Source: Neptunitalea lumnitzerae
Lineage (GTDB): Bacteria; Bacteroidota; Bacteroidia; Flavobacteriales; Flavobacteriaceae
DNA: 64,000 bases
NCBI RefSeq assembly: GCF_027924185.1
Contig: NZ_BRVO01000001.1
Coordinates: forward strand, 1,178,001 to 1,242,000
Direction: 5' to 3'
The translations under genes and the position numbers were made by a program. Below the pieces are notes generated by a model that searched no databases, was not told where the DNA came from, and saw only the letters and a program-made list of their open reading frames with translations. Positions 16,718 through 61,774 of this stretch are shown here, one piece after another; positions within the stretch are counted from its first letter, which is position 1, and every line of letters begins with the position of its first letter.

Positions 16718-16847
16718 TGCTTACTCCCAAATGGAGATGCGTACGCCTAAGTGATACTGAAAGATGTTCAGCATGACGAGTTTGGTATTTGTTTGTATAG
16801 CAATGTTTCGTCACCTTGAACTTGATTCAAGGTCTCATCTGAGTAAG
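16718..16847. repeat. Palindromic interspersed repeat, diverged copy
   Basis: A decayed unit of the window-wide repeat: GATGTTCAGCATGACG (16763-16778), a spacer, then a complete half-unit CGTCACCTTGAACTTGATTC..AAGGTCTCATCTGAGTAAG (16809-16847). It lies between paralogue B and hicA. The arms ACCTTGAA / TTCAAGGT still pair. Confidence 0.75.
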
Positions 16848-16920
16848 AATTCCCTTTTAAATATGGTAAACAGTATTCAAAGTCAAAATGTTACCTGTAA
16901 ATTACAAGTAATAATTTTAA

Positions 16921-16954
16921 TATAACATTTTTGTTATATAACTATTTTGTTATA
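16921..16954 (+). promoter_or_regulatory. Tandem palindromic operator of hicAB
   Basis: Two perfect inverted repeats of the form TATAAC-N6-GTTATA (16921-16938 and 16937-16954) share two bases and sit 7 bp before the hicA start. HicB antitoxins carry a DNA-binding domain and usually repress their own operon, so these are probable HicB sites. Their 16-bp phase could allow cooperative binding. Confidence 0.65.
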
Positions 16955-16961
16955 ATTTTAC

Positions 16962-17144
16962 ATGAAATCAAACGAGCTTATCAAGTTAATAGAGGCGGAT
17001 GGATGGTTTTTGGTTAGAACTAAAGGGAGTCATCATCATTTTAAGCATGATGAAAAAAAGGGATTAGTCACTATACCACACCCAAAAAAGGATATCCCAA
17101 CAGGAACAGCCAATGCCATTTTAAAACAAGCCGGACTTAAATAA
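16962..17144 (+). CDS. hicA: HicA-family mRNA interferase toxin
   Basis: The 60-aa protein is a full-length HicA: a dsRBD-like fold with the catalytic histidine region KGSHHHFKH (about residues 21-29), a GLVTIPHPKKDIPTGT strand and the C-terminal ILKQAG. HicA toxins cleave mRNA independently of the ribosome. The antitoxin gene starts 7 bp downstream. The tandem operator upstream suggests autoregulation. It lies next to the cas13b locus, so two RNA-cleaving systems adjoin here. Confidence 0.92.
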   Translation: MKSNELIKLIEADGWFLVRTKGSHHHFKHDEKKGLVTIPHPKKDIPTGTANAILKQAGLK

Positions 17145-17151
17145 AGGTGTT

Positions 17152-17562
17152 ATGGAGAAGACAATTTATGTGTATGTAGAAAAGGCCGAGGACGGCACTT
17201 ATTGGGGTACTTCTAAAAACATACCCGGAGTGGTAAGTGCTTTTGGAAACTCGCTAGAGGAGTTGAAAAGTAATTTTAAAACAGCTTTTGCCGATTATAT
17301 CGAGGTTGCCACTGAAGAACAAGAAGATTGGTTAGCGGAGGTAGCCAATTGTACCAACTTTGTGTACGAGCTAGACTTAGCCTCTTTCTTTAAGCTAGTT
17401 CCTGAAATTAAAATCTCAGCCATAGCCAAAAAAGCAGGGGTAAATGCTTCCCTAATGCGTCAATATGTAACAGGTAAAGCCAATGCCTCAGAAGAACGTA
17501 CCAAACAAATAGAACAAGCCATACACGAACTAGGTAAGGAGTTGTTATCGGTGAGCTTTTAG
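17152..17562 (+). CDS. hicB: HicB-family antitoxin with HTH domain
   Basis: The 136-aa protein has the HicB_like partial RNase H fold at the N-terminus (about 1-70; EKAEDGTYWGTSKNIPGV) and a helix-turn-helix at the C-terminus (about 85-132; ISAIAKKAGVNASLMRQYV). It would neutralise HicA by binding it and repress the operon at the tandem palindromes. It ends 120 bp before the end of the converging cas13b gene; a palindromic repeat copy lies in between. Confidence 0.92.
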   Translation: MEKTIYVYVEKAEDGTYWGTSKNIPGVVSAFGNSLEELKSNFKTAFADYIEVATEEQEDWLAEVANCTNFVYELDLASFFKLVPEIKISAIAKKAGVNASLMRQYVTGKANASEERTKQIEQAIHELGKELLSVSF

Positions 17563-17627
17563 GTTTTTGGTAGCTGGATAGTTGAAAGTTCACGGTTGAC
17601 AGTTTATGGTTGAAAGTACCCCAGAGC

Positions 17628-17666
17628 CGTCACCCTGAACTTGATTCAGGGTCTCAACAGAGTAAG
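17628..17666. repeat. Palindromic interspersed repeat, half-unit
   Basis: One half-unit CGTCACCCTGAACTTGATTC + AGGGTCTC ... GAGTAAG lies at the convergence point of hicB and cas13b. The hairpin ACCCTGAA / TTCAGGGT could act as a bidirectional terminator. Confidence 0.8.
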
Positions 17667-17682
17667 CATCATTTTTCAGGGT

Positions 17683-20600
17683 TTAGTTTGATTGTACTAA
17701 CTGAGCATTTACCGTTTCCTTTAGCTCCGTAATACTTTGTTGAACAAAGGAAAGAATTACTGCACTATAGGATTCTAAATTACTTTCCTGTACAAATGCT
17801 TTTATAAGATGATAGAACTCTTTTTTAGGAAGTTGATTGTGTGCAAATTTGTTTCGAATAAGTATTATTAAAAACATTTTCTGAACAAGGGTTGATTTAC
17901 TTTCGACTTCTGAAATACTTATTTTTTTGAAAGAGTGTTTTTCATCGTTGTCCAACCAAGTAACTTCCTCCTCGTTTGCAAGCTTATATTTTTTTAAAAT
18001 ACCTTGAGACAGATATTTTTTGAAATTAGGGTTGCCATCCTGTTCTAATTCGGTTGGGTGGTTTGTACCGTTAAAGCCCCATTTTTGTAAAATCCATTGT
18101 TCAAACTCTTGAATTTCTTTGAATAATATATTCCTGCGGATTACCTCATACGAATAGTCTTTTATTTCTAGTTCTTCTTCTAGTGCTGTTTTTTCATAAT
18201 ATTTGGAGGTATCATAAGATAATAGTGTTTGTACTTTTTCGTCTTGCAGATACTTTTTAAATTTACCTAGTTCTTTAATCTTAACCGCAGGTTCTTTTAT
18301 TTGTCCATGCTCATACGGAACCGTCATGCTCCATACAAAATTGGACTTTATAACATTGTCGCTTTTGTCTCCCACTTCGCGCTGGCTTTGTTCTCTGGCT
18401 TTCTTTTCTTCCGCTAAGCGTTCTTCTTGTGTTAAGTACAATTGCGCTAGCGTTATATGGGCAGCAGATCCAAAACTTTCTTTACATAAAGCATTGGCTA
18501 TTAATAGCAAAAAGACATCTTGAATTTGTGTTTTTTTAATTTTAAGGTCTTGCTTTTGCTTGAAAGACTTAAAATTAGGGTCGTCTTGGGTTAGAAAAAC
18601 ATCTTGGTAATCTCTTGGGTAGCTATAAAAACGTTGGTAATTGGTATGATGGTAAAAATGACTGTACCAGTCAGCATACTGTTCTGGGTTATCGGCAATG
18701 TGTACCCCACGTATGTAAGTGGGTTTGGCATCAAAAATACCTCTCGGAAATACCAAAGGTTTTGCCAGTAATTTGTTTTTCTGATTTTCTAAACTGTCAA
18801 TAGTATACAGGCGTTTATAGAAAATATCCCAAAGGTGTTGTTGCTTTACAAACTGTTTTAAGCGTTTGTTTTCATTTTTAAAGCCTTGTATTTGGGTTAG
18901 CAGAGCGTTCAATGTTTTTTGTCGGTTGCTGAGGTAGGCTCTATAAAAAGTATCAAAGAAACGCTGTTCAAATGCTGTGTAAATACCTGCGCTCCATGTA
19001 TGTTGGTCTTGTTTAAAATTCCAAAATTGCTCTAGCAGATGTAACGCTTCTTTAGGTTTTTGCTGGTAATAGGCTAATAATTCCTGTAACTGACTATGGT
19101 GATACCCTTTCCACTGACTTCGGCCAGATGGCGGCATAAACCGTTTAAGGTCTTCTGCTAGCCAGGTGGCTTCCTGTCCCAATTCCCGATTGGTGAAAAT
19201 TACTTTTCTTGTGTTTCTATAGTCTTTAAACGCTTTCGTATTATTATCAATAAGAGTTAGTTTTTCTTGGGTAACGTCTATTTCGGTTTGTATAGCAGCT
19301 ATTAGCTTGTTGGTGTCTATGGTTTCTTGTGCCTTGGCTCTGCGTAAGTTTTTGGTAATCTCGGAAGAAGAAAGTGCATCAGTAGTTTTGTAATTACGAA
19401 TGGTCTCATGCCGTTCTATCAGTTTTTTTACTAAGATGGTTTCAATTTCTTCTCCTGTTTTTTTGTGTACCAATAAATCATATAACAAAGCAGGGAGCTC
19501 GTTAAGCGAAAGCATGGCAGTGGGCATTCCCATTGCAATAGACTTATAACTTTTTGGTTTTAGGTCTTTATCTATAAAACCTGCAATCTGCTGTTTGGTA
19601 GGTTTGTCCTCTTTTCTTTTGCTATAAGTTTTAGTCTCTAAACCTCTTGCTTTTGATAGGTTTATATAGAGTTCTTTTGCTCCTGAAACATCGCTTTTAC
19701 TTAAATCAATAAATACCGGAATATTATCTGCTACAAAGTTATATGACGGATTAGGAAACAGTTCCCAACCGGTATCTGCGGGCGCTTGGTCTTTTAAAAA
19801 ATAGTCGGTTTTTAAATTGGTTACCTCCGATAGCTTGCCAAACACTTTTATTTTTTCTTTAATAACCCGTTCTGTACTATACTTGGTGCCCTCAATTTTT
19901 TTGGTACGGGCATCGTGCACGTAATTCCCTAAATGTAGTTGAAATTTTAGGGTAGGGAAATTGGCAAATTCATCTAAGTAGCGCAATACAAAATAGGCAA
20001 ATTTGTTTTCGTATCGTTTTCTAATTACCGGATGTATTACCGTAGCGTCCTCTAAATTATGTATCTTTTTCCCTTCTGTAATGTATTGGTTTATATCCTC
20101 TACAAATTGGTCTTTTTGTGCTTGTGTAAAGGTTTGGTATAAAGCATCGGGTACTTTGCTTAACTCATCTATAATTTGTACCAAAAGTGTCTCTTGAGAG
20201 AATCCTGTGGTTAACCTGTTTTTAACCCCTTTAAAGCTTAAATGCCTAAACACCCAATGGGTAGCCATGTATTTTAAGCTATTATTGTTTCGGTCAATTT
20301 CTTTATCTTCATTTTTAACTACTTTGCCTTTAAACCCTCTAATGTTACTACGCAAATCTTCTCCTTGTTTGCGGGTTAAAAACAACCCTAGCAAAAACAG
20401 CAATCCGCTTTCAGAAATAGCAATGCCGTTTTCGGCAGGCGTGTCTCTATTGTAAGCCGATTGGTAATTGGCATTCACACCATCTTTATACGTAAGGTGC
20501 CAAAAGGCATCGTTTAGTACCCCGTTTTTAATAGCCAAGGGTTCTAGGTTTACTTTTTCCCCTTTTGCTTTCTGTTCTTTTAACGTAGCTAGTTTTAGTG

Positions 20601-21171
20601 TTTCAAGGGTTTCTAATTCCTTACCCAATTCCTTTTTAAGCAAATGTCTAGAGCCGTCCGATTTTACCTTGTACTTTTTCACGTCAGCAATGGTTTTTAA
20701 AAACAGTTCATCTAAAAGGTCATATACATCGGGGTTTATGTGTATAGGTGCATGGTAATGATGGGTGTAGAAATTACGTAAACTTTCTATAGTGCTTAAA
20801 AAGGTAAGCATACTGTTTTTAAAATGTGCTCTACGTAATTGATCTCTATTTCCTTTTTTAGCAAACTTTTCATGGTCTATAGGTAAGTACAGGTACTGCA
20901 CCATTGGTAGGTGTTGTTTTAAAAAATCAACCCCAATTTCATAATCGGTAATGGTTTTTTGTTCGGTAAAATAAAGGTCAAATGCTCTTATATAATTTTT
21001 CTGTTTTTGGTCTCCTTTATTTTTAGGGTTAAAACGTTCCTCAAAAGCTGTAAAAACAGCATCTATATTATTTTGCGCTAAGTTTAAAAAACCTGCAAAA
21101 TAATGCTTATCGGTAATGCTGGTATGCGTATAATAAATGCCTTTTCCAATAGGCTGGGTAGTATGTTCCAT
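17683..21171 (-). CDS. cas13b: Cas13b, type VI-B CRISPR RNA-guided RNase
   Basis: The 1162-aa protein has the Cas13b layout with one HEPN motif near each end: R132-NFYT-H137 (SLRNFYTHHYH) and R1106-NKFA-H1111 (LIRNKFAHNQLP). Both are intact RxxxxH nuclease motifs; the two HEPN domains together form the RNase centre in this family. The long middle part is lysine-rich. Length fits the 1100-1250 aa typical of Cas13b. Family enzymes process their own crRNA, cleave target RNA and then cut bystander RNA. A VI-B-like array lies 162 bp upstream, separated by a terminator. No csx27, csx28, cas1 or cas2 is adjacent. The frame is unbroken. Confidence 0.95.
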   Translation of the reverse strand: MEHTTQPIGKGIYYTHTSITDKHYFAGFLNLAQNNIDAVFTAFEERFNPKNKGDQKQKNYIRAFDLYFTEQKTITDYEIGVDFLKQHLPMVQYLYLPIDHEKFAKKGNRDQLRRAHFKNSMLTFLSTIESLRNFYTHHYHAPIHINPDVYDLLDELFLKTIADVKKYKVKSDGSRHLLKKELGKELETLETLKLATLKEQKAKGEKVNLEPLAIKNGVLNDAFWHLTYKDGVNANYQSAYNRDTPAENGIAISESGLLFLLGLFLTRKQGEDLRSNIRGFKGKVVKNEDKEIDRNNNSLKYMATHWVFRHLSFKGVKNRLTTGFSQETLLVQIIDELSKVPDALYQTFTQAQKDQFVEDINQYITEGKKIHNLEDATVIHPVIRKRYENKFAYFVLRYLDEFANFPTLKFQLHLGNYVHDARTKKIEGTKYSTERVIKEKIKVFGKLSEVTNLKTDYFLKDQAPADTGWELFPNPSYNFVADNIPVFIDLSKSDVSGAKELYINLSKARGLETKTYSKRKEDKPTKQQIAGFIDKDLKPKSYKSIAMGMPTAMLSLNELPALLYDLLVHKKTGEEIETILVKKLIERHETIRNYKTTDALSSSEITKNLRRAKAQETIDTNKLIAAIQTEIDVTQEKLTLIDNNTKAFKDYRNTRKVIFTNRELGQEATWLAEDLKRFMPPSGRSQWKGYHHSQLQELLAYYQQKPKEALHLLEQFWNFKQDQHTWSAGIYTAFEQRFFDTFYRAYLSNRQKTLNALLTQIQGFKNENKRLKQFVKQQHLWDIFYKRLYTIDSLENQKNKLLAKPLVFPRGIFDAKPTYIRGVHIADNPEQYADWYSHFYHHTNYQRFYSYPRDYQDVFLTQDDPNFKSFKQKQDLKIKKTQIQDVFLLLIANALCKESFGSAAHITLAQLYLTQEERLAEEKKAREQSQREVGDKSDNVIKSNFVWSMTVPYEHGQIKEPAVKIKELGKFKKYLQDEKVQTLLSYDTSKYYEKTALEEELEIKDYSYEVIRRNILFKEIQEFEQWILQKWGFNGTNHPTELEQDGNPNFKKYLSQGILKKYKLANEEEVTWLDNDEKHSFKKISISEVESKSTLVQKMFLIILIRNKFAHNQLPKKEFYHLIKAFVQESNLESYSAVILSFVQQSITELKETVNAQLVQSN

Positions 21172-21194
21172 AGTAGTTTTTTGTTTTAGCTACC

Positions 21195-21238
21195 GTTAGT
21201 AACTGTAGGAGGCTGTAATTACTACAGCAGTTACCAAC
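21195..21238 (-). promoter_or_regulatory. Hairpin in the cas13b 5' leader
   Basis: An imperfect inverted repeat (GTTAGTAACTGTAG at 21195-21208; CTACAGCAGTTACCAAC at 21222-21238, with a 3-nt bulge) lies 24-67 nt before the cas13b ATG. Read on the cas13b strand it starts GTTGGTAACTG, close to the first bases of the crRNA-strand repeat (GTTGTAACTGG). Whether it is a regulatory structure is inference. Confidence 0.45.
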
Positions 21239-21249
21239 TGTACGAATCT

Positions 21250-21257
21250 TAAAGATA
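21250..21257 (-). promoter_or_regulatory. Candidate cas13b promoter (-7 box)
   Basis: TATCTTTA on the minus strand matches 7 of 8 positions of TAnnTTTG and lies about 80 nt upstream of the ATG. A start here would place the leader hairpin in the mRNA. No convincing -33 box is seen. Confidence 0.3.
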
Positions 21258-21294
21258 CTAACTTTTTATAGAAGTAACGTAGTGTGTAAAAAAT

Positions 21295-21329
21295 AAAAGG
21301 CGTAGCTGCGCTAAACAGCTACGCCTTTT
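21295..21329. terminator. Bidirectional terminator between CRISPR array and cas13b
   Basis: A perfect 14-bp inverted repeat (AAAAGGCGTAGCTG / CAGCTACGCCTTTT) with a 7-nt loop has T tracts on both strands. It ends 3 bp before the first repeat of the array. It would stop an array transcript on the minus strand before cas13b, and any plus-strand transcript before the array. Confidence 0.85.
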
Positions 21330-21332
21330 TTT

Positions 21333-21764
21333 GTTGTGAATAGCCTACAAAATTAGACCAGTTACAACATCTATAACCGTAATGAGGTTAGAGCTTTAGT
21401 TGTGAATAGCCTACAAAATTAGACTAGTTACAACGGTGTATATAACAGCAAGGGCGAATTGATTGTTGTGAATAGCCTACAAAATTAGACCAGTTACAAC
21501 GGTGTATATAACAGCAAGGGCGAATTGATTGTTGTGAATAGTCTACAAAATTAGACCAGTGACAACCAACGCCTGTTAATCCTAACGATGCAGTTAGTTG
21601 TGAATAGCCTACAAAATTAGACCAGTTACAACAGACATTGGGTAGTTCATCTGCTAATGTGAGTTGTGAATAGCCTACAAAATTAGACCAGTTACAACGG
21701 AAAGTTGAAAAATTTCAAAAGTGAATTAGTTGTGAATAGCCTACAAAATTAGACCAGTGACAAC
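21333..21764 (-). CRISPR. Type VI-B CRISPR array, 7 repeats and 6 spacers
   Basis: Seven 36-bp repeats start at 21333, 21399, 21465, 21531, 21597, 21663 and 21729. Every spacer is 30 bp. The plus-strand repeat begins GTTGTGAATAGCCTAC and ends GACCAGTTACAAC, so it has the VI-B GTTG...CAAC ends. The minus strand carries the central TTTT that VI-B crRNAs show, and its ends (GTTGTAACTGG, TTCACAAC) resemble the Bergeyella repeat, so I place the crRNA on the minus strand, as cas13b. Repeats 2, 4 and 7 have one or two substitutions; 4 and 7 share GTGACAAC. Spacers 2 and 3 are identical. Confidence 0.97.
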
Positions 21765-22012
21765 ATACTTAAAATACCTCTAAAATTCTCTTTGTTTACA
21801 AGGGTATCCATAACTTCTTAGCATTTAAAAAATGAAACAATTAAGGTATTTGTTACTGCAAAGTACGGCATTTTTTTATTTCTATGAGAACTCTTTAACC
21901 CTTAAAGATTGGATAATACCGTGAAAACTTCCTATTCTCAATACAACAAATGTCTATCGAAATTCACCCGAACTGACGGGGTTTTCTGGTGTTTGTTAGT
22001 ATCACAATGTTT
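21765..22012. other. AT-rich flank of the CRISPR array, possible leader
   Basis: No gene is seen. If the array is transcribed on the minus strand, this is its upstream side. A TACTTTGC box (21865 to 21858 on the minus strand) could be a -7-like element about 95 bp before the outermost repeat, but no -33 box is evident. Leader function is inferred from position. Confidence 0.3.
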
Positions 22013-22344
22013 CGTCACCCTGAACTTGATTCAGGGTCTCATTCGAGTAATCTAATCTGTACGTGAGCTACTTGTGCGATGCTGAATCGAGTTCAGCATG
22101 ACGAGTTTGGTATTTGTTTGTATTGCAATGTTTCGTCACCCTGAACTTGATTCAGGGTCTCATCATAGTAAGCTAATTAGTACGTGAGCTACTTTTGAGA
22201 TGCTGAATCAAGTTCAGCATGACGTTTTGGTATTTGTTTGTATTGCATAGTTTAGTCACCTTGAACTTGATTCAAGGTCTCATTCGAGTAATCTAATCAG
22301 TATTTAAGCTACCTGTGCGATGCTGAATCAAGTTCAGCATGACG
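22013..22344. repeat. Palindromic interspersed repeat, three tandem units
   Basis: Three units of about 91 bp recur with a 120-121 bp period, starting at 22013, 22134 and 22254. Each runs from CGTCAcCCTGAACTTGATTC to AAGTTCAGCATGACG and contains two hairpins and inverted CGTCA/TGACG ends. The linker between units (GTTTGGTATTTGTTTGTATT region) is conserved too. The cluster ends 12 bp before the GIY-YIG stop codon. Confidence 0.9.
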
Positions 22345-22355
22345 AGTTTGAAATA

Positions 22356-22637
22356 TTAAAAGATTTCAATTCTTTTCATTTTAGGGTTTTGTTTCTTAAT
22401 AAGATTGACTTTCCAGTCTCTACGCCAATTTTTTAATTGTTTTTCCCGTGCAATAGCAAGTTTTATATTAGTGAATTCTTCATAATAGATGAGATCTGTT
22501 AAAGTGTATTTAGATGAGAATTTACTTCCAATCCCATTTATATGTTTGCTTATTCTTTCGTTTAGATTACTTGTTACTCCAACATAGAGAGTAGTTCTGT
22601 ATTTGTTAGTTATTATGTATACATAAGATGTTTTCAA
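22356..22637 (-). CDS. Single-domain GIY-YIG nuclease
   Basis: The 93-aa protein is a lone GIY-YIG domain: SYVYIITN (residues 4-11, GIY position), LYVGVTSNLNERISKH (17-32, YIG position with the catalytic-type Arg28), then a YYEEF segment and a basic C-terminus (KQLKNWRRDWKVNLIKK). There is no UvrC or DNA-binding extension. Such short proteins are common in multiple copies in Flavobacteria, with unknown roles. Here it is enclosed by copies of the palindromic repeat at both ends, so it may be linked to that family. Confidence 0.9.
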   Translation of the reverse strand: MKTSYVYIITNKYRTTLYVGVTSNLNERISKHINGIGSKFSSKYTLTDLIYYEEFTNIKLAIAREKQLKNWRRDWKVNLIKKQNPKMKRIEIF

Positions 22638-22719
22638 GATTCAGTGTTTTGTTTATGAAGATCTGTATATTTTGATTGTAATTATTACTGATATCCTTAA
22701 TTAACAAAATGGAAACTAA

Positions 22720-22810
22720 CGTCACCCTGAACTTGATTCAGGGTCTCATCTGAGTAAGTTAATCTGTACGTGAGTTACTTGTGCGATGCTGAATCAAGTT
22801 CAGCATGACG
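22720..22810. repeat. Palindromic interspersed repeat, one full unit
   Basis: A complete 91-bp unit from CGTCACCCTGAACTTGATTC to CAGCATGACG, in the same orientation as the three units on the other side of the GIY-YIG gene. It lies between that gene and the dppC-like gene. Confidence 0.9.
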
Positions 22811-42892: not shown

Positions 42893-44590
42893 ATGCGTTG
42901 GAAACTTCAACCCAAACCTGATGCAGATAAGGTACAGCATTTGCAACAAGCTTTAGGGGTAGATACTTTTGTGGCTACCTTATTGGTGCAACGTGGTATT
43001 GAAACCTTTGAAGCAGCTAAAGATTTTTTTCGTCCGCAATTAAGTCATCTTCACGATCCATACCTGATGAAAGATATGGAAAAGGCGGTAGCCCGTATTG
43101 AAGAAGCCATTGCGAATGGAGAACACATATTAGTATACGGAGATTATGATGTAGATGGTACCACAGCGGTATCGTTAATGAGTAGTTACTTGTTAAGTAT
43201 TTACCCTGCAGTGGCTACCTATATACCAGATAGATATAATGAAGGTTATGGGGTAAGTTACCAAGGGATTGATTTTGCTTATGATAATGAGGTAACCTTA
43301 ATTGTTGCCTTAGACTGTGGTATTAAAGCAGTTGAAAAAGTAGCCTACGCCAAAGAAAAAGGGATTGATTTTGTAATATGCGATCACCACCGTCCGGGAG
43401 CTACGGTACCCGATGCGGTTGCTGTGCTAGACCCTAAACAAGAAGATTGTAATTACCCGTATGATGAGCTATGTGGTTGTGGTGTTGGGTTTAAGTTAAT
43501 ACAAGCCTTAGCTGCAAATAGGGAACAAACCATTACCGATTTAATTCCGTATTTAGATTTAGTTGCTACGGCTATAGCGGCAGATATTGTGCCTATTACT
43601 GGAGAAAATAGAGTGCTGTGTTATTACGGACTTAAAGTAATTAATTCGCAACCCCGAGTTGGGATTAAAGCACTTATTGGGGAGCTGAAGAAAAAAGAAC
43701 TTACCGTTACCGATGTGGTATTTATTATTGCCCCACGAATAAATGCAGCAGGGCGTATGGAACATGGGCAACACGCAGTAAACTTGCTTACAGAAACAGA
43801 TGAAGCTCAGGCTACATTTTTTGCGAAGGATATTGAAGAGTACAATGCCAACCGCCGTAGTTTAGATGAACAAATTACACAGGAGGCCTTAGCGCAAATA
43901 CAAGACCTAAAGGAAGAAAACAATAGTACTAGTGTTGTGTATGATGAAAGTTGGCACAAGGGGGTAATAGGTATTGTAGCTAGTAGGCTAACAGAAACCT
44001 ATTTTAGGCCTACTTTGGTGTTTACTAAAAGTGGTGAGAAGTTAGCGGCTTCGGCACGTTCGGTACCAGGGTTTGATGTATATAATGCTCTGGAGGCCTG
44101 TGCTGATTGCATTGAACAGTTTGGTGGACACAAATATGCGGCAGGACTCACCTTGTTGCCAGAACAATACGATGTCTTTAAAGCTAAGTTTGAAGCGGTA
44201 GTAAAAGAAACAATAGATACTAAGCTGCTAACCCCAGAAATTACTATTGATGAGGTAATACCGCTAGAGGCTATTAATGCGAAGTTTTACCGAATTATAA
44301 AACAATTTGCACCTTTTGGTCCCGGAAATATGACACCTGTGTTTATGACGGAGCAGGTAACCGATACCGGCTGGGGAAAAAAGGTAGGCGAAACAGGAGA
44401 CCATTTGCGTTTTGTGTTGGATGCTCCTTTGCCAGGAGAGCGCAAAAATTTAACCGGCATAGGTTTTGGTCTTGGAGATAAATATGAACTAATCACCCAT
44501 AAAAAACCATTTGCTATTGCTTATACCATTGATGAAAATGAATGGCAAGGTACCGTAAGTTTGCAATTACGGGTTAAAGATTTGAGGTAG
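42893..44590 (+). CDS. recJ: Single-stranded-DNA exonuclease RecJ
   Basis: The 565-aa protein has the DHH phosphoesterase motifs (VYGDYDVDGTTAVSLM, the DHHRPG motif, LDCGIKAVEK), the DHHA1 domain (GHKYAAGLTL) and an OB-fold C-terminus. RecJ degrades ssDNA 5' to 3' in recombination and repair. The last codons (KDLR-stop) lie in a 27-bp sequence repeated perfectly 1.9 kb downstream. The gene appears intact despite this. Confidence 0.95.
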   Translation: MRWKLQPKPDADKVQHLQQALGVDTFVATLLVQRGIETFEAAKDFFRPQLSHLHDPYLMKDMEKAVARIEEAIANGEHILVYGDYDVDGTTAVSLMSSYLLSIYPAVATYIPDRYNEGYGVSYQGIDFAYDNEVTLIVALDCGIKAVEKVAYAKEKGIDFVICDHHRPGATVPDAVAVLDPKQEDCNYPYDELCGCGVGFKLIQALAANREQTITDLIPYLDLVATAIAADIVPITGENRVLCYYGLKVINSQPRVGIKALIGELKKKELTVTDVVFIIAPRINAAGRMEHGQHAVNLLTETDEAQATFFAKDIEEYNANRRSLDEQITQEALAQIQDLKEENNSTSVVYDESWHKGVIGIVASRLTETYFRPTLVFTKSGEKLAASARSVPGFDVYNALEACADCIEQFGGHKYAAGLTLLPEQYDVFKAKFEAVVKETIDTKLLTPEITIDEVIPLEAINAKFYRIIKQFAPFGPGNMTPVFMTEQVTDTGWGKKVGETGDHLRFVLDAPLPGERKNLTGIGFGLGDKYELITHKKPFAIAYTIDENEWQGTVSLQLRVKDLR

Positions 44591-44600
44591 GTTTTTAGGG
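44574..44600 (+). repeat. 27-bp direct repeat, left copy (recJ 3' end)
   Basis: The sequence starts TTAAAGATTTGAGG and ends TAGGTTTTTAGGG; it covers the last recJ codons, the stop and 10 bp beyond. An identical copy lies at 46462-46488. The two bracket the ATPase/TOPRIM module, as attachment sites or a target-site duplication would. Confidence 0.93.
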
Positions 44601-44661
44601 TTTGTAAAGGATTAGTAATGTATCCTATTACTTTTTCAGTATTTTTGATTAAATTTAAGTT

Positions 44662-45894
44662 ATGACTAAGGTGAGCGATAAAGTAACAAATACATATATT
44701 GAAAAGGTACATCTTAATGGTTTTAATACTATTAAAAATTTGGATGTGTCTTTACAAAATGGTTTAAACATTATAATTGGAAAGAATGCCTCTGGGAAAA
44801 CTAATTTCATGACTTTTTTGAATGAGATTTTCGAAGATTTGGAATTGCCAGTTATTGATTTTGATGTAAATGTGTATTTGAATGGGCGTGTAGAGTATGA
44901 GTATCGAGCTTATAGTAATGGTCAAGATTTGCAGGATATAGGAATTACTAGAATTAAGGATTTAAATAGTTTAAGTGAGAGTGTTAGTAAGACTGCTTAC
45001 TACCTAGTTAATAATAAAATGGTGGAACCTCTAGATGTTATATCTAATGAATATAAAGTAAATAGGGTGTTGATAAAACATGGTGTTCCTTCTGAATATG
45101 ATCTGGTTAATCATCCTTGGAACTTTAACGTTTATGAAGGGAATCGGTACAAGGGTATGTTGCCACTTTTAAGAAAATCTAGAGAGACGCCTTCTTTTGT
45201 ATCTGATTTATCCCTTTCATTTTTTTTTAATTCAATAGGGTTACCTAAAGATCATGGATTAAAAAATATAGAATTGGTGAAAAGTACTATTAGAGAAACA
45301 GGTGAAGTTTTTTTTAAAAGTATTAAAGAGAAGTTAAAAAGATTTACATTAATTCAAGATGTCAGATTATCTGAGAATTTGAATCTTTTTTTTGATGATT
45401 CTAATGATTTACTTAGTTTAAATAATTTATTTCTTGAATTTTATGTAAATAACAATTGGTTGCCTTTTTCTAGTCTGTCAGATGGAACTAAAAGATTATT
45501 TTATATTATTTCAGAATGTAATAGTTTAAAATACAAGGGTGAAATTAAAATGAAAGATGATGTAGGAGTTAATTTTAATATTGATAATCGCAATAAGATT
45601 ATTTTATTGGAAGAACCAGAGTTAGGCTTACATCCGCATCAGTTGATGAATTTACTCCAATTTTTAAAGGAAGAGTCTTTAAATAAGCAAATTATTATAA
45701 CCACACATTCTCCAATGGTGTTAGATGTTTTAGATAAAACTGAATTGGACAGAATAATTATTGCTTCTTATAGTTTAGAGGAGAAGAGAACTTTAATGAG
45801 ACACTTAAGTGAAGAGGAAAAAGAAAAGGCGCAGCTATACATGGAGGATGACTATTTAAGTGATTATTGGAAGTATTCAGATCTAGAAGAATAA
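44662..45894 (+). CDS. AAA/ABC-type ATPase (OLD/RecF-like) of a putative defence module
   Basis: The 410-aa protein has Walker A G40-KNASGKT47 after an N-terminal LxGFNTIKNLDVSL segment, an ABC-like signature region SSLSDGTKRLFYI, Walker B with E317/E318 (ILLEEPELGLHP) and the switch histidine in ITTHSP. This is the AAA_15/AAA_21 type found in OLD, Gabija and PARIS-like systems. It has no own TOPRIM domain; the next gene, 5 bp downstream, appears to supply it. The gene looks more AT-rich than recJ. A TATTTTTG box (44640-44647) lies just upstream. Its role in defence is inferred. Confidence 0.85.
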   Translation: MTKVSDKVTNTYIEKVHLNGFNTIKNLDVSLQNGLNIIIGKNASGKTNFMTFLNEIFEDLELPVIDFDVNVYLNGRVEYEYRAYSNGQDLQDIGITRIKDLNSLSESVSKTAYYLVNNKMVEPLDVISNEYKVNRVLIKHGVPSEYDLVNHPWNFNVYEGNRYKGMLPLLRKSRETPSFVSDLSLSFFFNSIGLPKDHGLKNIELVKSTIRETGEVFFKSIKEKLKRFTLIQDVRLSENLNLFFDDSNDLLSLNNLFLEFYVNNNWLPFSSLSDGTKRLFYIISECNSLKYKGEIKMKDDVGVNFNIDNRNKIILLEEPELGLHPHQLMNLLQFLKEESLNKQIIITTHSPMVLDVLDKTELDRIIIASYSLEEKRTLMRHLSEEEKEKAQLYMEDDYLSDYWKYSDLEE

Positions 45895-45899
45895 TAGTT

Positions 45900-46478
45900 A
45901 TGGTAATAGCATTAGTAGGGGAAGCTCCCAATGATACGGATTCAATAGCAAATTTGCTTTCAAGAAAGTATGATTCGGGTTTTGATTTTATACCCTTACT
46001 GAATAGAACAAATGGTAGCGATTTGGATTCTCAAAAAACAAAAAGGTTACTACGAAACGAGTATGAGTTTGAAAAGCGAAAAGGAAATGCCATTGATGTT
46101 GTAATTTTTGTTAGAGATTTAGATGGGCTCGCTAGTAATAGTCATCAAAGAACTATTAGGGATGATTATTTTACTAATTTTAATAGTGTTGTAGATAGAA
46201 AGGGGATATACCTTTTAAATATCTATGAAATAGAAGCATTGATTTTGGCAGATATTAAAACTTTTAATGCTAAATATAATACTACTGTAGAACAAGTTGA
46301 GGATTCTATGTTAATCGAAGAGCCTAAAGAATTTCTAAGGGGGCAAAAAGTGGGGTATTTCGAATCTCATAACCCTGAAATATTCGGACTTTTAGATTTT
46401 GAAACGGTATATTCTAATTGTAATTATTTTAGTCTTTTTATAGATAGATTTAATAGGTTGATTAAAGATTTGAGGTAG
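45900..46478 (+). CDS. TOPRIM-like/DUF4276-like partner protein
   Basis: The ATG at 45900 gives 192 aa, 5 bp after the ATPase stop; an upstream TTG would overlap the ATPase gene. The N-terminus VGEAPNDTDSIANLL places E8 as the TOPRIM-type glutamate, D73-x-D75 (IFVRDLDG) as the DxD motif, and E110/E112 (IYEIEALILAD) as further acidic residues. It is probably a small TOPRIM-fold nuclease driven by the ATPase. Its last codons (KDLR-stop) come from the right direct repeat, so its natural C-terminus may have been altered at insertion. Family naming is tentative. Confidence 0.72.
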   Translation: MVIALVGEAPNDTDSIANLLSRKYDSGFDFIPLLNRTNGSDLDSQKTKRLLRNEYEFEKRKGNAIDVVIFVRDLDGLASNSHQRTIRDDYFTNFNSVVDRKGIYLLNIYEIEALILADIKTFNAKYNTTVEQVEDSMLIEEPKEFLRGQKVGYFESHNPEIFGLLDFETVYSNCNYFSLFIDRFNRLIKDLR

Positions 46479-46488
46479 GTTTTTAGGG
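46462..46488 (+). repeat. 27-bp direct repeat, right copy
   Basis: Identical over 27 bp to 44574-44600. It overlaps the 3' end of the TOPRIM-like gene. The unit from one copy to the next is 1888 bp and contains only the two-gene module. Confidence 0.93.
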
Positions 46489-46608
46489 GTAGACGTAGTT
46501 TAAGGTATATAAAATAAGTAATAAGGTTCATGTTGTATTAAGCTTAGGGTTTTAACAAATAAAGTGTCTAATTCTCAATGTTAAGTTTTTGATGTTAAGA
46601 ATGTTTCA

Positions 46609-46641
46609 TTTGTAATTACGCGTAAAAAAATCTTATATTTG
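46609..46641 (+). promoter_or_regulatory. Promoter of the metalloprotease gene
   Basis: TTTG at 46609-46612 and TATATTTG at 46634-46641 fit the Bacteroidetes -33 and -7 boxes with a 21-bp spacer. The gene starts 65 bp downstream. The preceding 46489-46608 holds no feature. Confidence 0.5.
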
Positions 46642-46705
46642 GTAACTAACTGAAAACCAATACCGATTTTTTCTCGTATACATTTATGAGATAATAGCGA
46701 TACCT

Positions 46706-56156: not shown

Positions 56157-56622
56157 CTCATAAACTTACTCAGATGGGATCCTGAATCAAGTTCAGGATG
56201 ACGGAACACTATATATAAACACCCTCGTCATGTTGAACTTGATTCAACATCTCACAAGTGGCTCATAAACTCACTCAGATGGGATCCTGAAATCGAAGAT
56301 TCAACGGAGTTCACCAAGTTCAGGATGACGGAATACTCTCTATATATAAACACCCTCGTCATGTTGAACTTGATTCAACATCTCACAAGTGGCTCATAAA
56401 CTTACTCCAATGAGATCCTGAACTAAATTCAGGATGACGGAACACTCTCTATATATAACCACCCTCGTCATGTTAAACTGGTTTCAACATCTCACAAGTG
56501 GCTCATAAACTCACTCAGATGGGATCCTGAAATCGAAGATTCAACGGAGTTAATCAAGTTCAGGATGACGCTATGCTCTCAACAAACAACTAATCCTCGT
56601 CATGTTGAACTTGATTCAGGAT
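56157..56622. repeat. Palindromic interspersed repeat cluster, inverted orientation
   Basis: Four alternating pairs of the hairpins CCTGAA..TTCAGG and GTTGAA..TTCAAC recur at about 120 bp, here reversed relative to the cluster near 22 kb. In two units (56286-56324 and about 56526-56564) the hairpin loop is enlarged by a 24-nt insert starting ATCGAAGATTCAACGG. The last unit is a hybrid (GTTGAAC..TTCAGGATG). The gap 56053-56637 holds no gene. Confidence 0.9.
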
Positions 56623-56637
56623 GTGGTGTTATACCTT

Positions 56638-57018
56638 TTAGCTTACTAATCCTTCAAACAGCTGGTTCAGCGTTTCTTCTAAATTGTTACTAAAGCCGGG
56701 ATGTGGTCTGGAGGTTTGTATGCAAGAGCTTCTAACAGCAGTAAGCCATCGGAATCTGTCTGCTAAATCCATCGCTCCAATTCGGCCGCCATGAGTACCG
56801 TTACAAACTTTTACAAAAGACGCTAAGTTTTGCTCAAATACCTCCACATCAGCTTCTTTATCAAAGAGCAGTATTTTTTCGGAATGTAGCGCATATTGTA
56901 CCGCCAAATATTTTGCACGCTTACAGAATAGAATAATACCTGCGTTAATAAATTCTTCTCTTTCAACCTTAGGCACAATTCGTATTACGGCATATTCATA
57001 TAAGTACTTTTCTGGCAT
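56638..57018 (-). CDS. DUF3037 protein
   Basis: The 126-aa soluble protein matches DUF3037: YEYAVIRIVPKVEREEFINAGIILFC at the start and ADRFRWLTAVRSSCIQTSRPHPG in the second half. Function unknown. Its start overlaps the end of the HipA-like kinase gene by 23 bp. This pairing is common in bacteria and suggests a joint function. Confidence 0.85.
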   Translation of the reverse strand: MPEKYLYEYAVIRIVPKVEREEFINAGIILFCKRAKYLAVQYALHSEKILLFDKEADVEVFEQNLASFVKVCNGTHGGRIGAMDLADRFRWLTAVRSSCIQTSRPHPGFSNNLEETLNQLFEGLVS

Positions 57019-57790
57019 CTTGAGCTTCTTTTACAAAAATTTCTGAATTAGCTATTCGTCGAATTAAAAATTGTGCATATACCTCGCGCATACTTTCCGG
57101 ACTTTCAGATCCGTCAGGCGAAATTAACCAAGTATCGGGTATCAAGTTTACAATGTTTCTAAGTGCTTCTTCGGTAAGAATACTTTTAAATTTGGTATTA
57201 GCCTTGTCTAGCATAGTGGCTTGTGGTAGCAATACATGGTCTTTTATATAAGTAAACGGACTTAACGCATGTTTTTCCCAGTTTACCCATGAGTGATGAA
57301 AAAAGAAAGATGCACCATGATCTATCAACCATAACTCTTTATGCCACATAAGCATGTTGGTATTTTTAAAGGTACGGTCTACATTGGTTATAAAAGCATC
57401 TAACCATACAATTTCAGAGGCTGTTTGAGCATCTACTTCAGTAACTAAAGGGTCAAAATTAATAGCGCCCGATAGAAAATGTAATGCAAGGTTTAGTCCT
57501 TGACTTCCTTGTAATAAATCCTGAATTTCTTCATCTCCTTCTGTTCTTCCAAATGCTGGGTCTAATTCTGCATATACAAGTTCAGGTACTTTAAAGCCCA
57601 TTAATCGGGCAATTTCACCTCCTAGTAATTCTGCAATTAAGGCTTTTTCTAAATGGCCTGCACCTCTAAATTTAACCACATATTTAAAGCCGTCATCGGC
57701 ATCTGCTAAGGCGGGTAAAGAACCGCCTTCTCTCAGGGCTAAAATATAACGCGTTACGTTAACGGTGCGTAATTGGTTAGTTGCATCCAT
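56996..57790 (-). CDS. HipA-like kinase-fold protein
   Basis: The ATG at 57790 gives 264 aa (MDATNQL); the longer frame to 57853 runs through the promoter and is rejected. The protein has a kinase-like fold related to HipA: KYVVKFRG (ATP-lysine strand), GGEIARLMG, WLDAFITNVDRTFKNTNML (catalytic N-D-R type loop) and LWLIDHGASFFF (DxG-like). It is probably a Ser/Thr kinase or kinase-fold regulator. No HipB partner is adjacent; DUF3037 overlaps its 3' end. Confidence 0.85.
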   Translation of the reverse strand: MDATNQLRTVNVTRYILALREGGSLPALADADDGFKYVVKFRGAGHLEKALIAELLGGEIARLMGFKVPELVYAELDPAFGRTEGDEEIQDLLQGSQGLNLALHFLSGAINFDPLVTEVDAQTASEIVWLDAFITNVDRTFKNTNMLMWHKELWLIDHGASFFFHHSWVNWEKHALSPFTYIKDHVLLPQATMLDKANTKFKSILTEEALRNIVNLIPDTWLISPDGSESPESMREVYAQFLIRRIANSEIFVKEAQDARKVLI

Positions 57791-57807
57791 TTTTTTACAA
57801 TAAAAAA

Positions 57808-57848
57808 CAAAGGTACTAAAAAACATAACCTTAAATAATATACATTTG
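57808..57848. promoter_or_regulatory. Divergent promoters
   Basis: TACCTTTG on the minus strand (57815 to 57808) fits the HipA-like gene start at 57790. TACATTTG on the plus strand (57841-57848) fits the oxygenase start at 57874. Both are full TAnnTTTG matches, 25 bp apart. Confidence 0.5.
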
Positions 57849-57873
57849 CGCACTTATTTTTTGTAACCAAACA

Positions 57874-58521
57874 TTGTTAACAACAGAATTGTATGAGCAA
57901 TTGGATTTCGTTGAAAATCCACTCTACGAGAAGGTTATTACAGACTTACTTAACCAACAGTATAGTGTTGTAGAAGATTTTTTTACTCCGGAAGAAGTAG
58001 TGCAGTTGCGCGCTTCATTGCAGGATAAATACGAAGAAGATGCTTTTAAAAAGGCTGCTATTGGCAACCGTGTAAATGAAAGTATTGTAAAATCGGTACG
58101 TGGTGATTTTATTTTATGGCTGAACGAAGCAGAAGCCAATGCCGCAGAAACTACCTTTTTTAACCGTATAAACGATTTTATATCGTATATGAACCGTACC
58201 TGTTTTATGGGTATTTTGTTTAAAGAGTTTCACTATGCGTTGTACCCTGAAGGTACTTTTTACAAACGACATTTAGATACGTTTCAGAATGATGATAGAC
58301 GAAAACTGTCTATTGTTTGTTATTTGAATGAAGAAGATTGGAAACCTGAATACGGAGGTGAATTGGTTATTTATACCAATGACAATAGAGTAGAAGAAGA
58401 AAAGGTGTTTTACCCGCTTCCTGGGCGTGTGGTTATATTTGAAAGTCAGATTTTAGAGCACGAAGTAAAACCTGTTAAGCAACCAAGGTTAAGTATTACC
58501 GGTTGGCTTAAAACAAGGTAA
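57874..58521 (+). CDS. 2OG-Fe(II) oxygenase
   Basis: The 215-aa protein has the iron-binding triad H133-x-D135 (YKRHLDTFQNDD) and H196 (ILEHEVKP), plus the 2-oxoglutarate-binding Arg in PRLSITGW. Such prolyl-hydroxylase-like enzymes hydroxylate proteins or small molecules. The likely start is TTG at 57874: no in-frame ATG occurs before residue 110, and the promoter is just upstream. Confidence 0.9.
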   Translation: MLTTELYEQLDFVENPLYEKVITDLLNQQYSVVEDFFTPEEVVQLRASLQDKYEEDAFKKAAIGNRVNESIVKSVRGDFILWLNEAEANAAETTFFNRINDFISYMNRTCFMGILFKEFHYALYPEGTFYKRHLDTFQNDDRRKLSIVCYLNEEDWKPEYGGELVIYTNDNRVEEEKVFYPLPGRVVIFESQILEHEVKPVKQPRLSITGWLKTR

Positions 58522-58564
58522 ACGCTTTGTTTACATAATAATGGTTTGAGCTTGCTTAGGTAGT

Positions 58565-58738
58565 TTATTCTTTTCGTTTGTTTTTAAAATACGAAAACAT
58601 AAGATACGCAAAAGCAGCCAATACAATTAAAGGTAATAAATACCCAATTAGCACCCCGATGACATAAGAGTTGTCGGGTGCATTTTTTATTTTTTCTTCA
58701 ATATCAGGTTGCTGAAATAAGGTAATTAACAAGTTCAT
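58565..58738 (-). CDS. 57-aa small single-pass membrane protein
   Basis: ATG at 58738 opens a 57-codon frame MNLLITLFQQPDIEEKIKN ... ending FKNKRKE. One helix (about residues 26-50, VIGVLIGYLLPLIVLAAFAY) precedes a basic tail. It starts 1 bp after the enoyl-CoA hydratase stop on the same strand, which supports coupled translation. A plus-strand hairpin with a T tract (58651-58690), which may end the oxygenase transcript, lies inside it. Family not recognised. Confidence 0.65.
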   Translation of the reverse strand: MNLLITLFQQPDIEEKIKNAPDNSYVIGVLIGYLLPLIVLAAFAYLMFSYFKNKRKE

Positions 58739-58739
58739 T

Positions 58740-59501
58740 TTACTTCTTATTTTTAAATGAAGCTAAAGCTTCTTTAGTAAAAGGCGAAAGTACTAATCTT
58801 CCTGAAATTTCTGCATTATCAAATAATAATTCTTCCCAATTTTCAGTGCCCTCCCATAAAGTATGTTTCATGGCTCTTAATGCCGCCGGATTATATGTTG
58901 TTAATTTATCGGTTAATTGTAGTAAAGCGGTATCTACATCTTTAATAGATTCAAAAACTTGCGTGTAAAGACCTTTCTTTAAAGCCCATTGTGCCGATTT
59001 CCAATCTTGAGCATTTAAGGTTAAATCTGCCAAAGCTGTTTTACCTATTTTGCGTTCTACGGCAGGCGCAATTACAAACGGACCAATGCCTATACTAAAT
59101 TCAGAAAGTTTTATCTGGGCACTTTCGGTAGCCATTACATAATCACAGGCTGCTACAAGTCCAACACCGCCGCCAACAGTTTTACCTTGTACTCTACCAA
59201 TAATAAGTTTGGTACAACTACGCATAGCATTTAATACATTGGCAAAGCCACTAAAAAAAGCAATGCCCTCTTCCATGTTTTTAATTTCTAAAAGTTCATC
59301 AAACGAAGCACCAGCACAGAAGGCTTTTTCACCTGCACTTTGTAGTACTAGCGCGGTAATAGTTTTATCGTTAGAAACTTTTTCAATGGCTTTGGTAAGC
59401 TCTTTCAACATAGCAGAAGGAAACGAATTACTAGCAGGATGGCCAAAAGTAATGGTAGCAATTTTGTTAGTAACAACGGTTGTAATGGTACCTTGTGTCA
59501 T
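58740..59501 (-). CDS. Enoyl-CoA hydratase/isomerase family protein
   Basis: The 253-aa crotonase-fold protein has the oxyanion-hole segments AFCAGASFDELLEI and GRVQGKTVGGGVGLVAACDYVMA and the family ending. It acts on acyl-CoA thioesters, in fatty-acid or amino-acid breakdown. The usual second catalytic Glu position in the SIGIGPF region reads I/G, so hydratase activity is uncertain. A MATE gene lies upstream. Confidence 0.88.
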   Translation of the reverse strand: MTQGTITTVVTNKIATITFGHPASNSFPSAMLKELTKAIEKVSNDKTITALVLQSAGEKAFCAGASFDELLEIKNMEEGIAFFSGFANVLNAMRSCTKLIIGRVQGKTVGGGVGLVAACDYVMATESAQIKLSEFSIGIGPFVIAPAVERKIGKTALADLTLNAQDWKSAQWALKKGLYTQVFESIKDVDTALLQLTDKLTTYNPAALRAMKHTLWEGTENWEELLFDNAEISGRLVLSPFTKEALASFKNKK

Positions 59502-59536
59502 TATAATAGTTTTGGGTCTTCCCCAAAAATAACAAA

Positions 59537-60880
59537 TTATGTAGAAGTGTGTAAATACTTACTTCTAAATTTTAATACAGGACCAATAGACCTTATCAGC
59601 ATCCAAACGGTAAAGGCTATCCAAATACCGTAGAGTTCTAAACCCGTATAGTGTGTAATGGTAACTACGGGTATAAAGCCAAAAAGGGTAGCAACAATTA
59701 ATAAGTTTCTTAAAAATTTAGCTTCTCCTAATCCTTTAAAAATACCGTCAAACATAAAGGCTATGGAGTTGATAGGCTGCATGAGTAATACCATCCAAAA
59801 CACAGAGTAGAAGGCGGCTAGTACTCCTTCATCTTTATTAAACAGTAAGCCTATTTGGTTATATAGCACCACACAAATAGCAATAAGAATACAGGCTATA
59901 GTGATGGCGTATTTACAAATATCAATACTTAAAAACCATAGTTTTTTGTATGCCTTTTGCCCTAAAAGTTTTCCTGAAATAGCATTACCAGCATTGGCAT
60001 AGCCATCAATAAAGAAAGAGAAAAACAGCCAAATGTTCATTAAGATACTTTGTGCTGCAATACTATTTTTACCGTACACCGTGGCTAATCTGCTGGCTAC
60101 TACCATGGCAACATTTAAAAAGAAGGTTCTAATAAATAAGTTACCACTCATAATAAGCAATGCCCGTAAATTAGGATTAATGGTTTTGCTAATTTTAAAA
60201 CCAAATGGAGTTTTATAAGTATAAAATAAAATAGCCATGAAAAGCATGGTAAGCTGCGCTATAACACTAGCAATAGCAGCCCCTTGCAAATGCATAGCCG
60301 GTATGAAACCATCAATACCATATACCAAGGTAAAATCTAACCCAATATTTACAGCAGCGCCCACCAAGCTACATATCATAGCCCATAGGGTATTTTGCAT
60401 ACCCCTAAATACGCCAAATATAGCAAAGGTTACCAAAGTAAGCGGATAGCCCAAAGCCCTAATAAAATAATAGCTTTCAGCATAGGCTAGAATTTTTCCT
60501 TCGGCTTCAAAAATGGTTGAAAAAATAAAGTGCGATCCTGCGGTAGTAATTACCAATAGGAGCAGGCTAAGTAACAGGTTTAACCCTATAACCTGCGGAA
60601 CCAAGGTTTTTACGGCATGTAATCGGTTTTCGCCAAGGTGTTTAGAAACCATTGCAGAAATGGCCGTTTTGGTCTGTGCTAGAATCCAAATAAGTGCCGA
60701 TAAAAACGAACCAACAATACCCGCAGCCGCCAAAGCTTCTACAGAGTTTTCTTTAACATTACCCAATACCGCAACATCGGTTATGGAAATAAGAGGTTCT
60801 GCTATACCTGCAAAAATAGCAGGTAGTGCAAGCTTGTTTATTTCCCAGAAGCTGACTTTGGTAGTACTGTTTTTCGTCAT
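59537..60880 (-). CDS. MATE-family efflux transporter
   Basis: The 447-aa protein has about 12 helices in two MATE halves (EINKLALPAIFAGIAEPLIS at the start; the second half from about residue 235). It resembles the DinF-type branch. Such transporters export drugs or metabolites with H+ or Na+. It lies 35 bp upstream of the enoyl-CoA hydratase gene on the same strand. Confidence 0.9.
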   Translation of the reverse strand: MTKNSTTKVSFWEINKLALPAIFAGIAEPLISITDVAVLGNVKENSVEALAAAGIVGSFLSALIWILAQTKTAISAMVSKHLGENRLHAVKTLVPQVIGLNLLLSLLLLVITTAGSHFIFSTIFEAEGKILAYAESYYFIRALGYPLTLVTFAIFGVFRGMQNTLWAMICSLVGAAVNIGLDFTLVYGIDGFIPAMHLQGAAIASVIAQLTMLFMAILFYTYKTPFGFKISKTINPNLRALLIMSGNLFIRTFFLNVAMVVASRLATVYGKNSIAAQSILMNIWLFFSFFIDGYANAGNAISGKLLGQKAYKKLWFLSIDICKYAITIACILIAICVVLYNQIGLLFNKDEGVLAAFYSVFWMVLLMQPINSIAFMFDGIFKGLGEAKFLRNLLIVATLFGFIPVVTITHYTGLELYGIWIAFTVWMLIRSIGPVLKFRSKYLHTST

Positions 60881-60929
60881 GCCTGCAAAGGTCGGGATTA
60901 TTTTTAAATTTTAGAATGAATGCACATCC

Positions 60930-61774
60930 CGTCATTCTGAACTCGATTCAGGATCTCATCTGAGTAAGTTTTTGAGCTACTAGTGAGATGTTGAATCAAG
61001 TTCAACATGACGAGGGGTAGTTTTTTGTTGAGTGTGTTCCGTCATCCTGAATTTAATTCAGGATCTCATCCGAGTAAGTTTTTTGAGCTACTAGTGAGAT
61101 GTTGCATCCAGTGCAACATGACGTAGGGTGATTTTTGTTGAGAGTGTCCCGTCATCCTGAATTTAGTTCAGTATCTCATCTGAGTAAGTTTTTTGAGCTG
61201 CTAGTGAGATGTTGCATTCAGTTCAACATGACGAGGTATAGTTGTTTGTAGGGAGTTTTGCGTCATCCTGAACTCGATTCAGGATCCCATCCGAGTAAGT
61301 TTTTTAAGTTACTAGTGAGATGTTGAATCAAGTTCAACATGACGTAGGGCAGTTGTTTGTAGGGGTTTTTGCGTCATCCTGAATTAAGTTCAGGCTCCCA
61401 TCTGAGTGAGTTTATGAGCTACTAGTGAGATGTTGAATCAAGTTTAACATGACGAGGGGTAGTTGTTTGTAGGGAGTTTTGCGTCCTCCTGAATTTAGTT
61501 CAGGATCCCATCTGAGTAAGTTTTTTGAGTTACTAGTGAGATGTTGCATCTAGTTCAACATGACGTAGGCTGATTTTTTGTTGAGAGTCGTGCGTCATCC
61601 TGAACTTGATTAAGGATCCCATCTGAGTGAGTTTTGAGCTGTTAGTGAGATGTTGAATCCAGTTCAACATTAGTTGTTTGTAGGGAGTTTTGCGTCATCC
61701 TGAATTTAGTTAAGGATCCCATCTGAGTGAGTTTTGAGCTGTTAGTGAGATGTTGAATCCAGTTCAACATGATG
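60930..61774. repeat. Palindromic interspersed repeat cluster, eight tandem units
   Basis: Eight units of 80-90 bp recur with a period near 110 bp, beginning CGTCATcCTGAA at about 60930, 61041, 61150, 61261, 61372, 61480, 61593 and 61693. Each has a TCCTGAA..TTCAGGA hairpin, a conserved GAGTAAGTTTTTGAGCTACT linker and a GTTGAATCAAGTTCAAC hairpin. The two last units are the most decayed. The 1-kb gap between the MATE and Usp genes holds no gene besides this cluster. Confidence 0.92.

What the first reader, a model, noticed from the sequence alone, without database searches (positions are those of the whole stretch)
44574..46488. 27-bp perfect direct repeat brackets the module and duplicates the recJ 3' end
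The same 27 bp (recJ codons KDLR-stop plus 10 bp) occurs at 44574-44600 and 46462-46488. The unit is 1888 bp and contains only the two genes, with no integrase. Insertion at the 3' end of recJ kept recJ intact and also supplied the last codons and stop of the TOPRIM-like gene. This is how integrative elements that target gene 3' ends behave, so the unit may be a mini-island mobilised in trans.
Basis: partly seen in the sequence, partly recalled or inferred. Interest (0 to 1): 0.85.

Follow-up and report, generated by a model that had tools for sequence, protein, structure and literature searches.

The report
Integrase-less defence-like cassette after recJ
A compact two-gene cassette that looks like an anti-phage system was inserted from outside exactly at the end of the recJ gene, leaving a perfect 27-base duplication at both borders, but it carries no gene that could have moved it, so how it was inserted remains open.

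Summary
TTAAAGATTTGAGGTAGGTTTTTAGGG occurs at 44574-44600 and 46462-46488 and nowhere else in the genome, even allowing 3 mismatches. The 1888-bp unit holds only an OLD/AriA-type AAA ATPase and a DUF4276 protein (TOPRIM-like motifs), most like the candidate defence system HEC-01. It is an insertion: the only congener held has recJ followed directly by the homologous downstream region, and removing one unit makes the two genomes collinear. The module has low G+C and a patchy distribution.

'Mini-island mobilised in trans' is only partly supported. The duplication fits attL/attR, but none of 20 family relatives has a duplicated recJ end or a detectable integrase near it, and no related site was found near the genome's recombinases, in 397 family genomes, or (exact matches) in viral contigs. 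Nine homologous modules in other Bacteroidota are equally compact but have no flanking repeats; in one genus the module is present in some species and cleanly absent in another. The repeat is therefore the scar of this one insertion, not a conserved part of the module. A recombinase acting in trans (or since lost) and a one-off illegitimate insertion remain about equally possible.

The parts
42893..44590 (+). recJ (single-strand exonuclease); its 3' end is the insertion site
   Evidence: ORF; full-length recJ matches in 37 of 40 relatives, 89% aa identity in the congener
44574..44600 (+). left copy of the 27-bp direct repeat (attL-like / duplicated target): recJ codons KDLR, stop and 10 bp
44601..44661 (+). 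61-bp leader of the module; contains TATTTTTG (44640-44647), a match to the Bacteroidetes -7 box TAnnTTTG as known from memory
   Evidence: read from sequence; no sigma-70 excess or Rfam match
44662..45894 (+). OLD/AriA-type ABC/AAA ATPase, 410 aa (AAA_21, AAA_15; PADLOC AriA / HEC-01A)
45900..46478 (+). DUF4276-family protein with TOPRIM-like motifs (GE...D; RDLD), 192 aa; weak HEC-01B match; last four codons and stop lie in the right repeat
46462..46488 (+). right copy of the 27-bp direct repeat (attR-like / duplicated target)
46489..46705 (+). original downstream flank of recJ, homologous to the region following recJ in the congener without the module

Best explanation
A two-gene, HEC-01-like putative anti-phage module (OLD-type ATPase plus TOPRIM-like DUF4276 protein) was acquired horizontally and inserted as a unit into the 3' end of recJ. 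Shown: the insertion, its borders, the unchanged recJ reading frame and the empty state in a congener. Inferred: one 27-bp copy is the original recJ end and the other arose with the insertion, so the repeats are att-like borders. The likeliest route, by a small margin, is integration of a circular or excised form at the recJ 3' end by a recombinase not encoded in the unit (supplied in trans at the time, or lost with the rest of a larger element). A one-off duplicative insertion is nearly as likely. The module now behaves as resident cargo with no sign of current mobility. Inferred from homologues, its product would be a two-component defence in which the ATPase senses infection and controls the TOPRIM-like effector.
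For: Perfect 27-bp repeat at the borders, unique in the genome and beyond chance. The congener G001 lacks the module and becomes collinear with the window when one repeat unit is removed; recJ stop to next conserved block is 146 bp in the window versus 137 bp. The ATPase gene has the lowest G+C of the 39 large ORFs in the window, 0.285, and the DUF4276 gene 0.307. Homologues are patchy: absent as an intact gene from all other genomes of a 397-genome family sample, scattered over other families and phylum members. Several homologues are broken. The same module is present or cleanly absent between arsC and fumC in congeneric species of another family. The repeat covers the last codons, stop and a few bases beyond, the usual position of 3'-end integration sites (established knowledge).
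Against: No recombinase in the unit and none in the genome whose neighbourhood holds a related site. No other copy of the site in 397 family genomes beyond two chance-like 3-mismatch hits, and no exact match in viral contigs. Nine homologous modules in other genomes have no flanking repeats. recJ 3' ends in 20 family relatives carry no such duplication and no detectable integrase nearby. No excised circle or second occupied recJ site was seen.
Confidence: 0.5

Rival explanations
1. One-off illegitimate or homology-assisted insertion of a foreign fragment. The 27-bp duplication is a by-product of staggered breakage and fill-in or template switching at recJ, and the truncated end of the DUF4276 gene borrowed its last four codons and stop from recJ.
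For: Homologous modules sit equally tightly between host genes without repeats, so the family needs no att sites. The KDLR tail lies exactly where homologues end variably, 0-5 residues after the last conserved helix. No recombinase with a related site was found.
Against: Both ends would have to fall by chance within 61 bp of the first gene's start and within the last codons of the second, in frame. A 27-bp duplication is unusually long for such repair (general knowledge).
Confidence: 0.38
2. Decayed larger integrative element (CIME-like remnant): an element with an integrase once lay between these att sites and internal deletion left only two genes.
For: attL/attR-like repeats kept without integration or transfer genes is the definition of a CIME (PMC5704250).
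Against: No integrase or mobilisation remnant, and no space for one: 61 bp on the left, and overlap of gene and repeat on the right. Homologous modules elsewhere are also minimal.
Confidence: 0.15
3. Transposition with a long target-site duplication, such as the 24-29 bp known to me for the IS1202 group, by a transposase acting in trans.
For: Duplication length is within that range (from memory).
Against: No transposase, and no terminal inverted repeats visible at the inner borders: TTTGTAAAGG at the left end versus TCAACCTATT read inward from the right end (sequence; the inverted repeats show none there).
Confidence: 0.04
4. Chance repeat or assembly artefact.
For: None beyond the lack of read data.
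Against: Chance expectation about 9e-7; the unit lies inside a 1.68-Mb contig and matches the empty-site comparison.
Confidence: 0.02

Closest known systems
CIMEs (cis-mobilizable elements; PMC5704250)
   Same: Direct-repeat borders at a gene 3' end, cargo only, no integrase
   Different: att function not shown; no related integrase or partner element found; no trace of a decayed larger element
H47 genomic island of E. coli (PMC5426353)
   Same: Small island bounded by direct repeats, no recombinase of its own; its excision needs neither RecA nor any of the host's 16 site-specific recombinases
   Different: 13 kb with long imperfect repeats and excision shown by PCR; here 1.9 kb, 27-bp perfect repeat, no excision data
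HEC-01 (Hma-embedded candidate 01, PADLOC)
   Same: Adjacent AAA ATPase (HEC-01A, 6e-23) and DUF4276-type partner (HEC-01B, 4.9e-6); 7 of 9 homologues match the same HEC-01B model
   Different: Partner match weak; not embedded in an Hma locus here; function untested
PARIS (AriA/AriB) and other OLD-family systems
   Same: Best PADLOC match of the ATPase is AriA (2.9e-27); retron Ec78 PtuA, PtuA, AriA, GajA and OLD chains in the PDB match its profile; ATPase plus TOPRIM-like partner
   Different: Partner is DUF4276, not the DUF4435/AriB family; AriB was not detected

Membership tests
CIME / integrase-less mini-island | Direct repeats at both borders, one reconstituting the target gene | tested here: met
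CIME / integrase-less mini-island | Empty site with a single copy in a relative | tested here: met
   congener has one recJ end and no module; the exact junction bases have diverged
CIME / integrase-less mini-island | A cognate integrase or related element using the same site | tested here: not met
   none found in own genome, family sample or viral contigs
CIME / integrase-less mini-island | Excision as a circle or transfer | not testable with these tools
   needs PCR or reads
HEC-01 | HEC-01A-type AAA ATPase | tested here: met
   E 6e-23 (the AriA model scores higher, 2.9e-27)
HEC-01 | Adjacent HEC-01B (DUF4276) partner | tested here: inconclusive
   E 4.9e-6, 7 of 9 homologues hit PDLC04207; all 9 hit DUF4276 but the window copy is below the Pfam cut-off (24.7 v 30.2 bits)
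HEC-01 | Anti-phage activity | not testable with these tools
   needs an infection assay
PARIS | AriB (DUF4435) TOPRIM partner | tested here: not met
   partner matches DUF4276 / HEC-01B only
TOPRIM effector | Catalytic E and DxD motifs on a TOPRIM fold | tested here: inconclusive
   Invariant G7 E8, D12, D73 L74 D75 and E110, E112 over 9 homologues; fold model has pLDDT 45 and is not usable; no significant PDB profile match
Xer/dif-type module (pdif-like) | 28-bp site with XerC and XerD half-sites in inverted arrangement | tested here: inconclusive
   the symmetry test has no power (E. coli dif itself is not significant in it); by eye no inverted half-sites
IS1202-like transposition | Terminal inverted repeats inside the duplication | tested here: not met

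The most novel reading that the evidence does not exclude
A minimal (1.9 kb) defence cassette that integrates site-specifically at the 3' end of recJ using a recombinase supplied in trans, with its attachment site built into the coding end of its own effector gene, so that insertion completes the effector while restoring recJ.
Probability: 0.2. Interest if true: 0.7.

Novelty: new member of a known kind. Interest (0 to 1): 0.38.

Why it matters
Small defence gene pairs are scattered through genomes without obvious vehicles. This locus is a fresh example with both borders readable, so the question of how such pairs move can be tested here. The comparison also shows that related pairs come and go as equally tight units with no repeats, which argues that site-specific integration is not their general route.

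Tried and rejected
Searched phage and plasmid records and viral contigs for the proteins: no match. Searched for the 27-bp site in 397 family genomes: two 3-mismatch hits, neither near recJ. Searched viral contigs for recJ as a provirus flank: none. Looked for a promoter, terminator or RNA family: nothing above background. Symmetry test of the repeat: no power. AlphaFold model of the DUF4276 protein: too poor to use, so no fold search was made. The idea that the module family carries conserved attachment sites was rejected.

Full report
Observation. The repeat TTAAAGATTTGAGGTAGGTTTTTAGGG is present at 44574-44600 and 46462-46488, 1888 bp apart, with no mismatch. Searching the whole 3.85-Mb genome with up to three mismatches returns only these two copies. 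From base composition about 9e-7 such pairs are expected in the window. Other long direct repeats in the window are CRISPR repeats and dispersed intergenic repeats; among 429 kb of comparison sequence all repeats of 25 bp or more fall in one repetitive gene. The left copy holds the last codons and stop of recJ, the right copy the last codons and stop of the DUF4276 gene.

It is an insertion. The only other genome of the genus that is held has recJ at 89% protein identity and the same neighbourhood without the two genes. When the two flanks of the window are joined with one copy of the repeat, the sequence aligns with the congener through recJ, the intergenic region and the next gene with only small gaps; the distance from the recJ stop to the next conserved block is 146 bp against 137 bp. 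The intergenic bases at the junction have diverged, so the congener does not show which copy is original. The ATPase gene has the lowest G+C of all large ORFs in the window (0.285; DUF4276 gene 0.307; recJ 0.409).

What the module is. The first gene is an OLD/AriA-type ATPase (AAA_21 3e-26, PADLOC AriA 2.9e-27, HEC-01A 6e-23). A profile of seven homologues matches retron Ec78 PtuA, PtuA, AriA, GajA and OLD in the PDB. The second is a DUF4276-type protein (3.2e-5, below Pfam's cut-off for this copy, but all nine homologues hit it) and a weak HEC-01B match (4.9e-6; 7 of 9 homologues hit the same model). Across nine homologues the residues GE (7-8), D12, D-L-D (73-75) and E110/E112 are invariant, which fits a TOPRIM active site; the structure model was too poor to test the fold. 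By analogy with PARIS and other OLD-family systems the pair would be a sensor ATPase with a nuclease effector. This is inference.

Relatives of the module. Homologous pairs were found in Flavobacterium bernardetii after purB, in four phylum members, two of them with a stop counted in the matched stretch, and in further Bacteroidia. None of the other genomes in a 397-genome family sample holds an intact copy; one holds a tail remnant. In every intact case examined the two genes alone sit tightly between host genes. In one family four genomes carry the pair between an arsC-like gene and fumC; one congener has arsC directly followed by fumC and no pair, and a fifth genome from another family also has the pair just upstream of fumC. 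None of the nine other loci has direct repeats clearly above the shuffled background (the best is one 13-base match in one locus against a shuffled maximum of 12). The repeat in the window is therefore a feature of this insertion and not of the module family.

How it got there. A repeat covering the last codons, stop and a few bases of a gene is what 3'-end integration leaves. Against a trans-acting integrase in the present genome: five matches to the tyrosine recombinase family exist. Two are short Xer-like proteins (about 300 aa), one is a 421-aa integrase lying next to a 46-bp tRNA-associated repeat, one is broken and one is weak; no neighbourhood contains anything like the 27-bp site, and the resolvase family is absent. 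recJ ends in 20 family relatives show no duplication within up to about 15 kb, and tblastn with the genome's integrase and Xer-like proteins finds no integrase there. The site is absent from viral contigs by exact match. Homologues of the DUF4276 protein end variably, 0-5 residues beyond the last conserved helix, so the KDLR tail may equally be the module's own attachment sequence or a recJ end borrowed at insertion. I put a recombinase-mediated event (in trans or since lost) slightly ahead of a one-off duplicative insertion, because both borders are so tightly fitted to the genes and the duplication is long, but the evidence does not decide.

Comparison with the known. The arrangement works like a CIME, an element that kept attL and attR but no integration genes (PMC5704250), or like the E. 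coli H47 island, which excises although it encodes no recombinase (PMC5426353). Membership is not established because no cognate recombinase or excision was seen. The cargo is best described as HEC-01-like; it is not PARIS, because the partner is not AriB.

Verdict. A real, well-bounded and probably recent insertion of a putative defence pair. The mobile mini-island reading is possible but unproven.

Noticed in passing
window 17683-21171 (-), array 21333-21764: Type VI-B CRISPR-Cas13b effector (PADLOC Cas13b 5.6e-258) with an adjacent array of seven 36-bp repeats at 66-bp spacing.
   Followed up: partly
window about 16766-22790 and 56223-61700: Dispersed intergenic repeats with palindromic cores (e.g. 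TGCTGAATCAAGTTCAGCATGACG, CGTCACCCTGAACTTGATTCAGGGTCTCAT), some in tandem units of about 121 bp.
   Followed up: no
L125-L129 (arsC/dcd - module - fumC), L140, L142: The same ATPase/DUF4276 pair recurs just upstream of fumC in two families; one congener (L140) is empty there, another (L142) has about 690 bp of other sequence between arsC and fumC: a possible small insertion hotspot.
   Followed up: partly
L109 (window genome, contig C2:884000-903900): Putative tRNA-associated integrative element with a 421-aa integrase, bounded by a 46-bp direct repeat (positions 1498 and 10893), with several other direct repeats of 26-64 bp beyond it.
   Followed up: no
L088 7451-7552 (also L052): Degraded tail of the DUF4276 gene in another family member, left as a remnant in a short open frame.
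   Followed up: no
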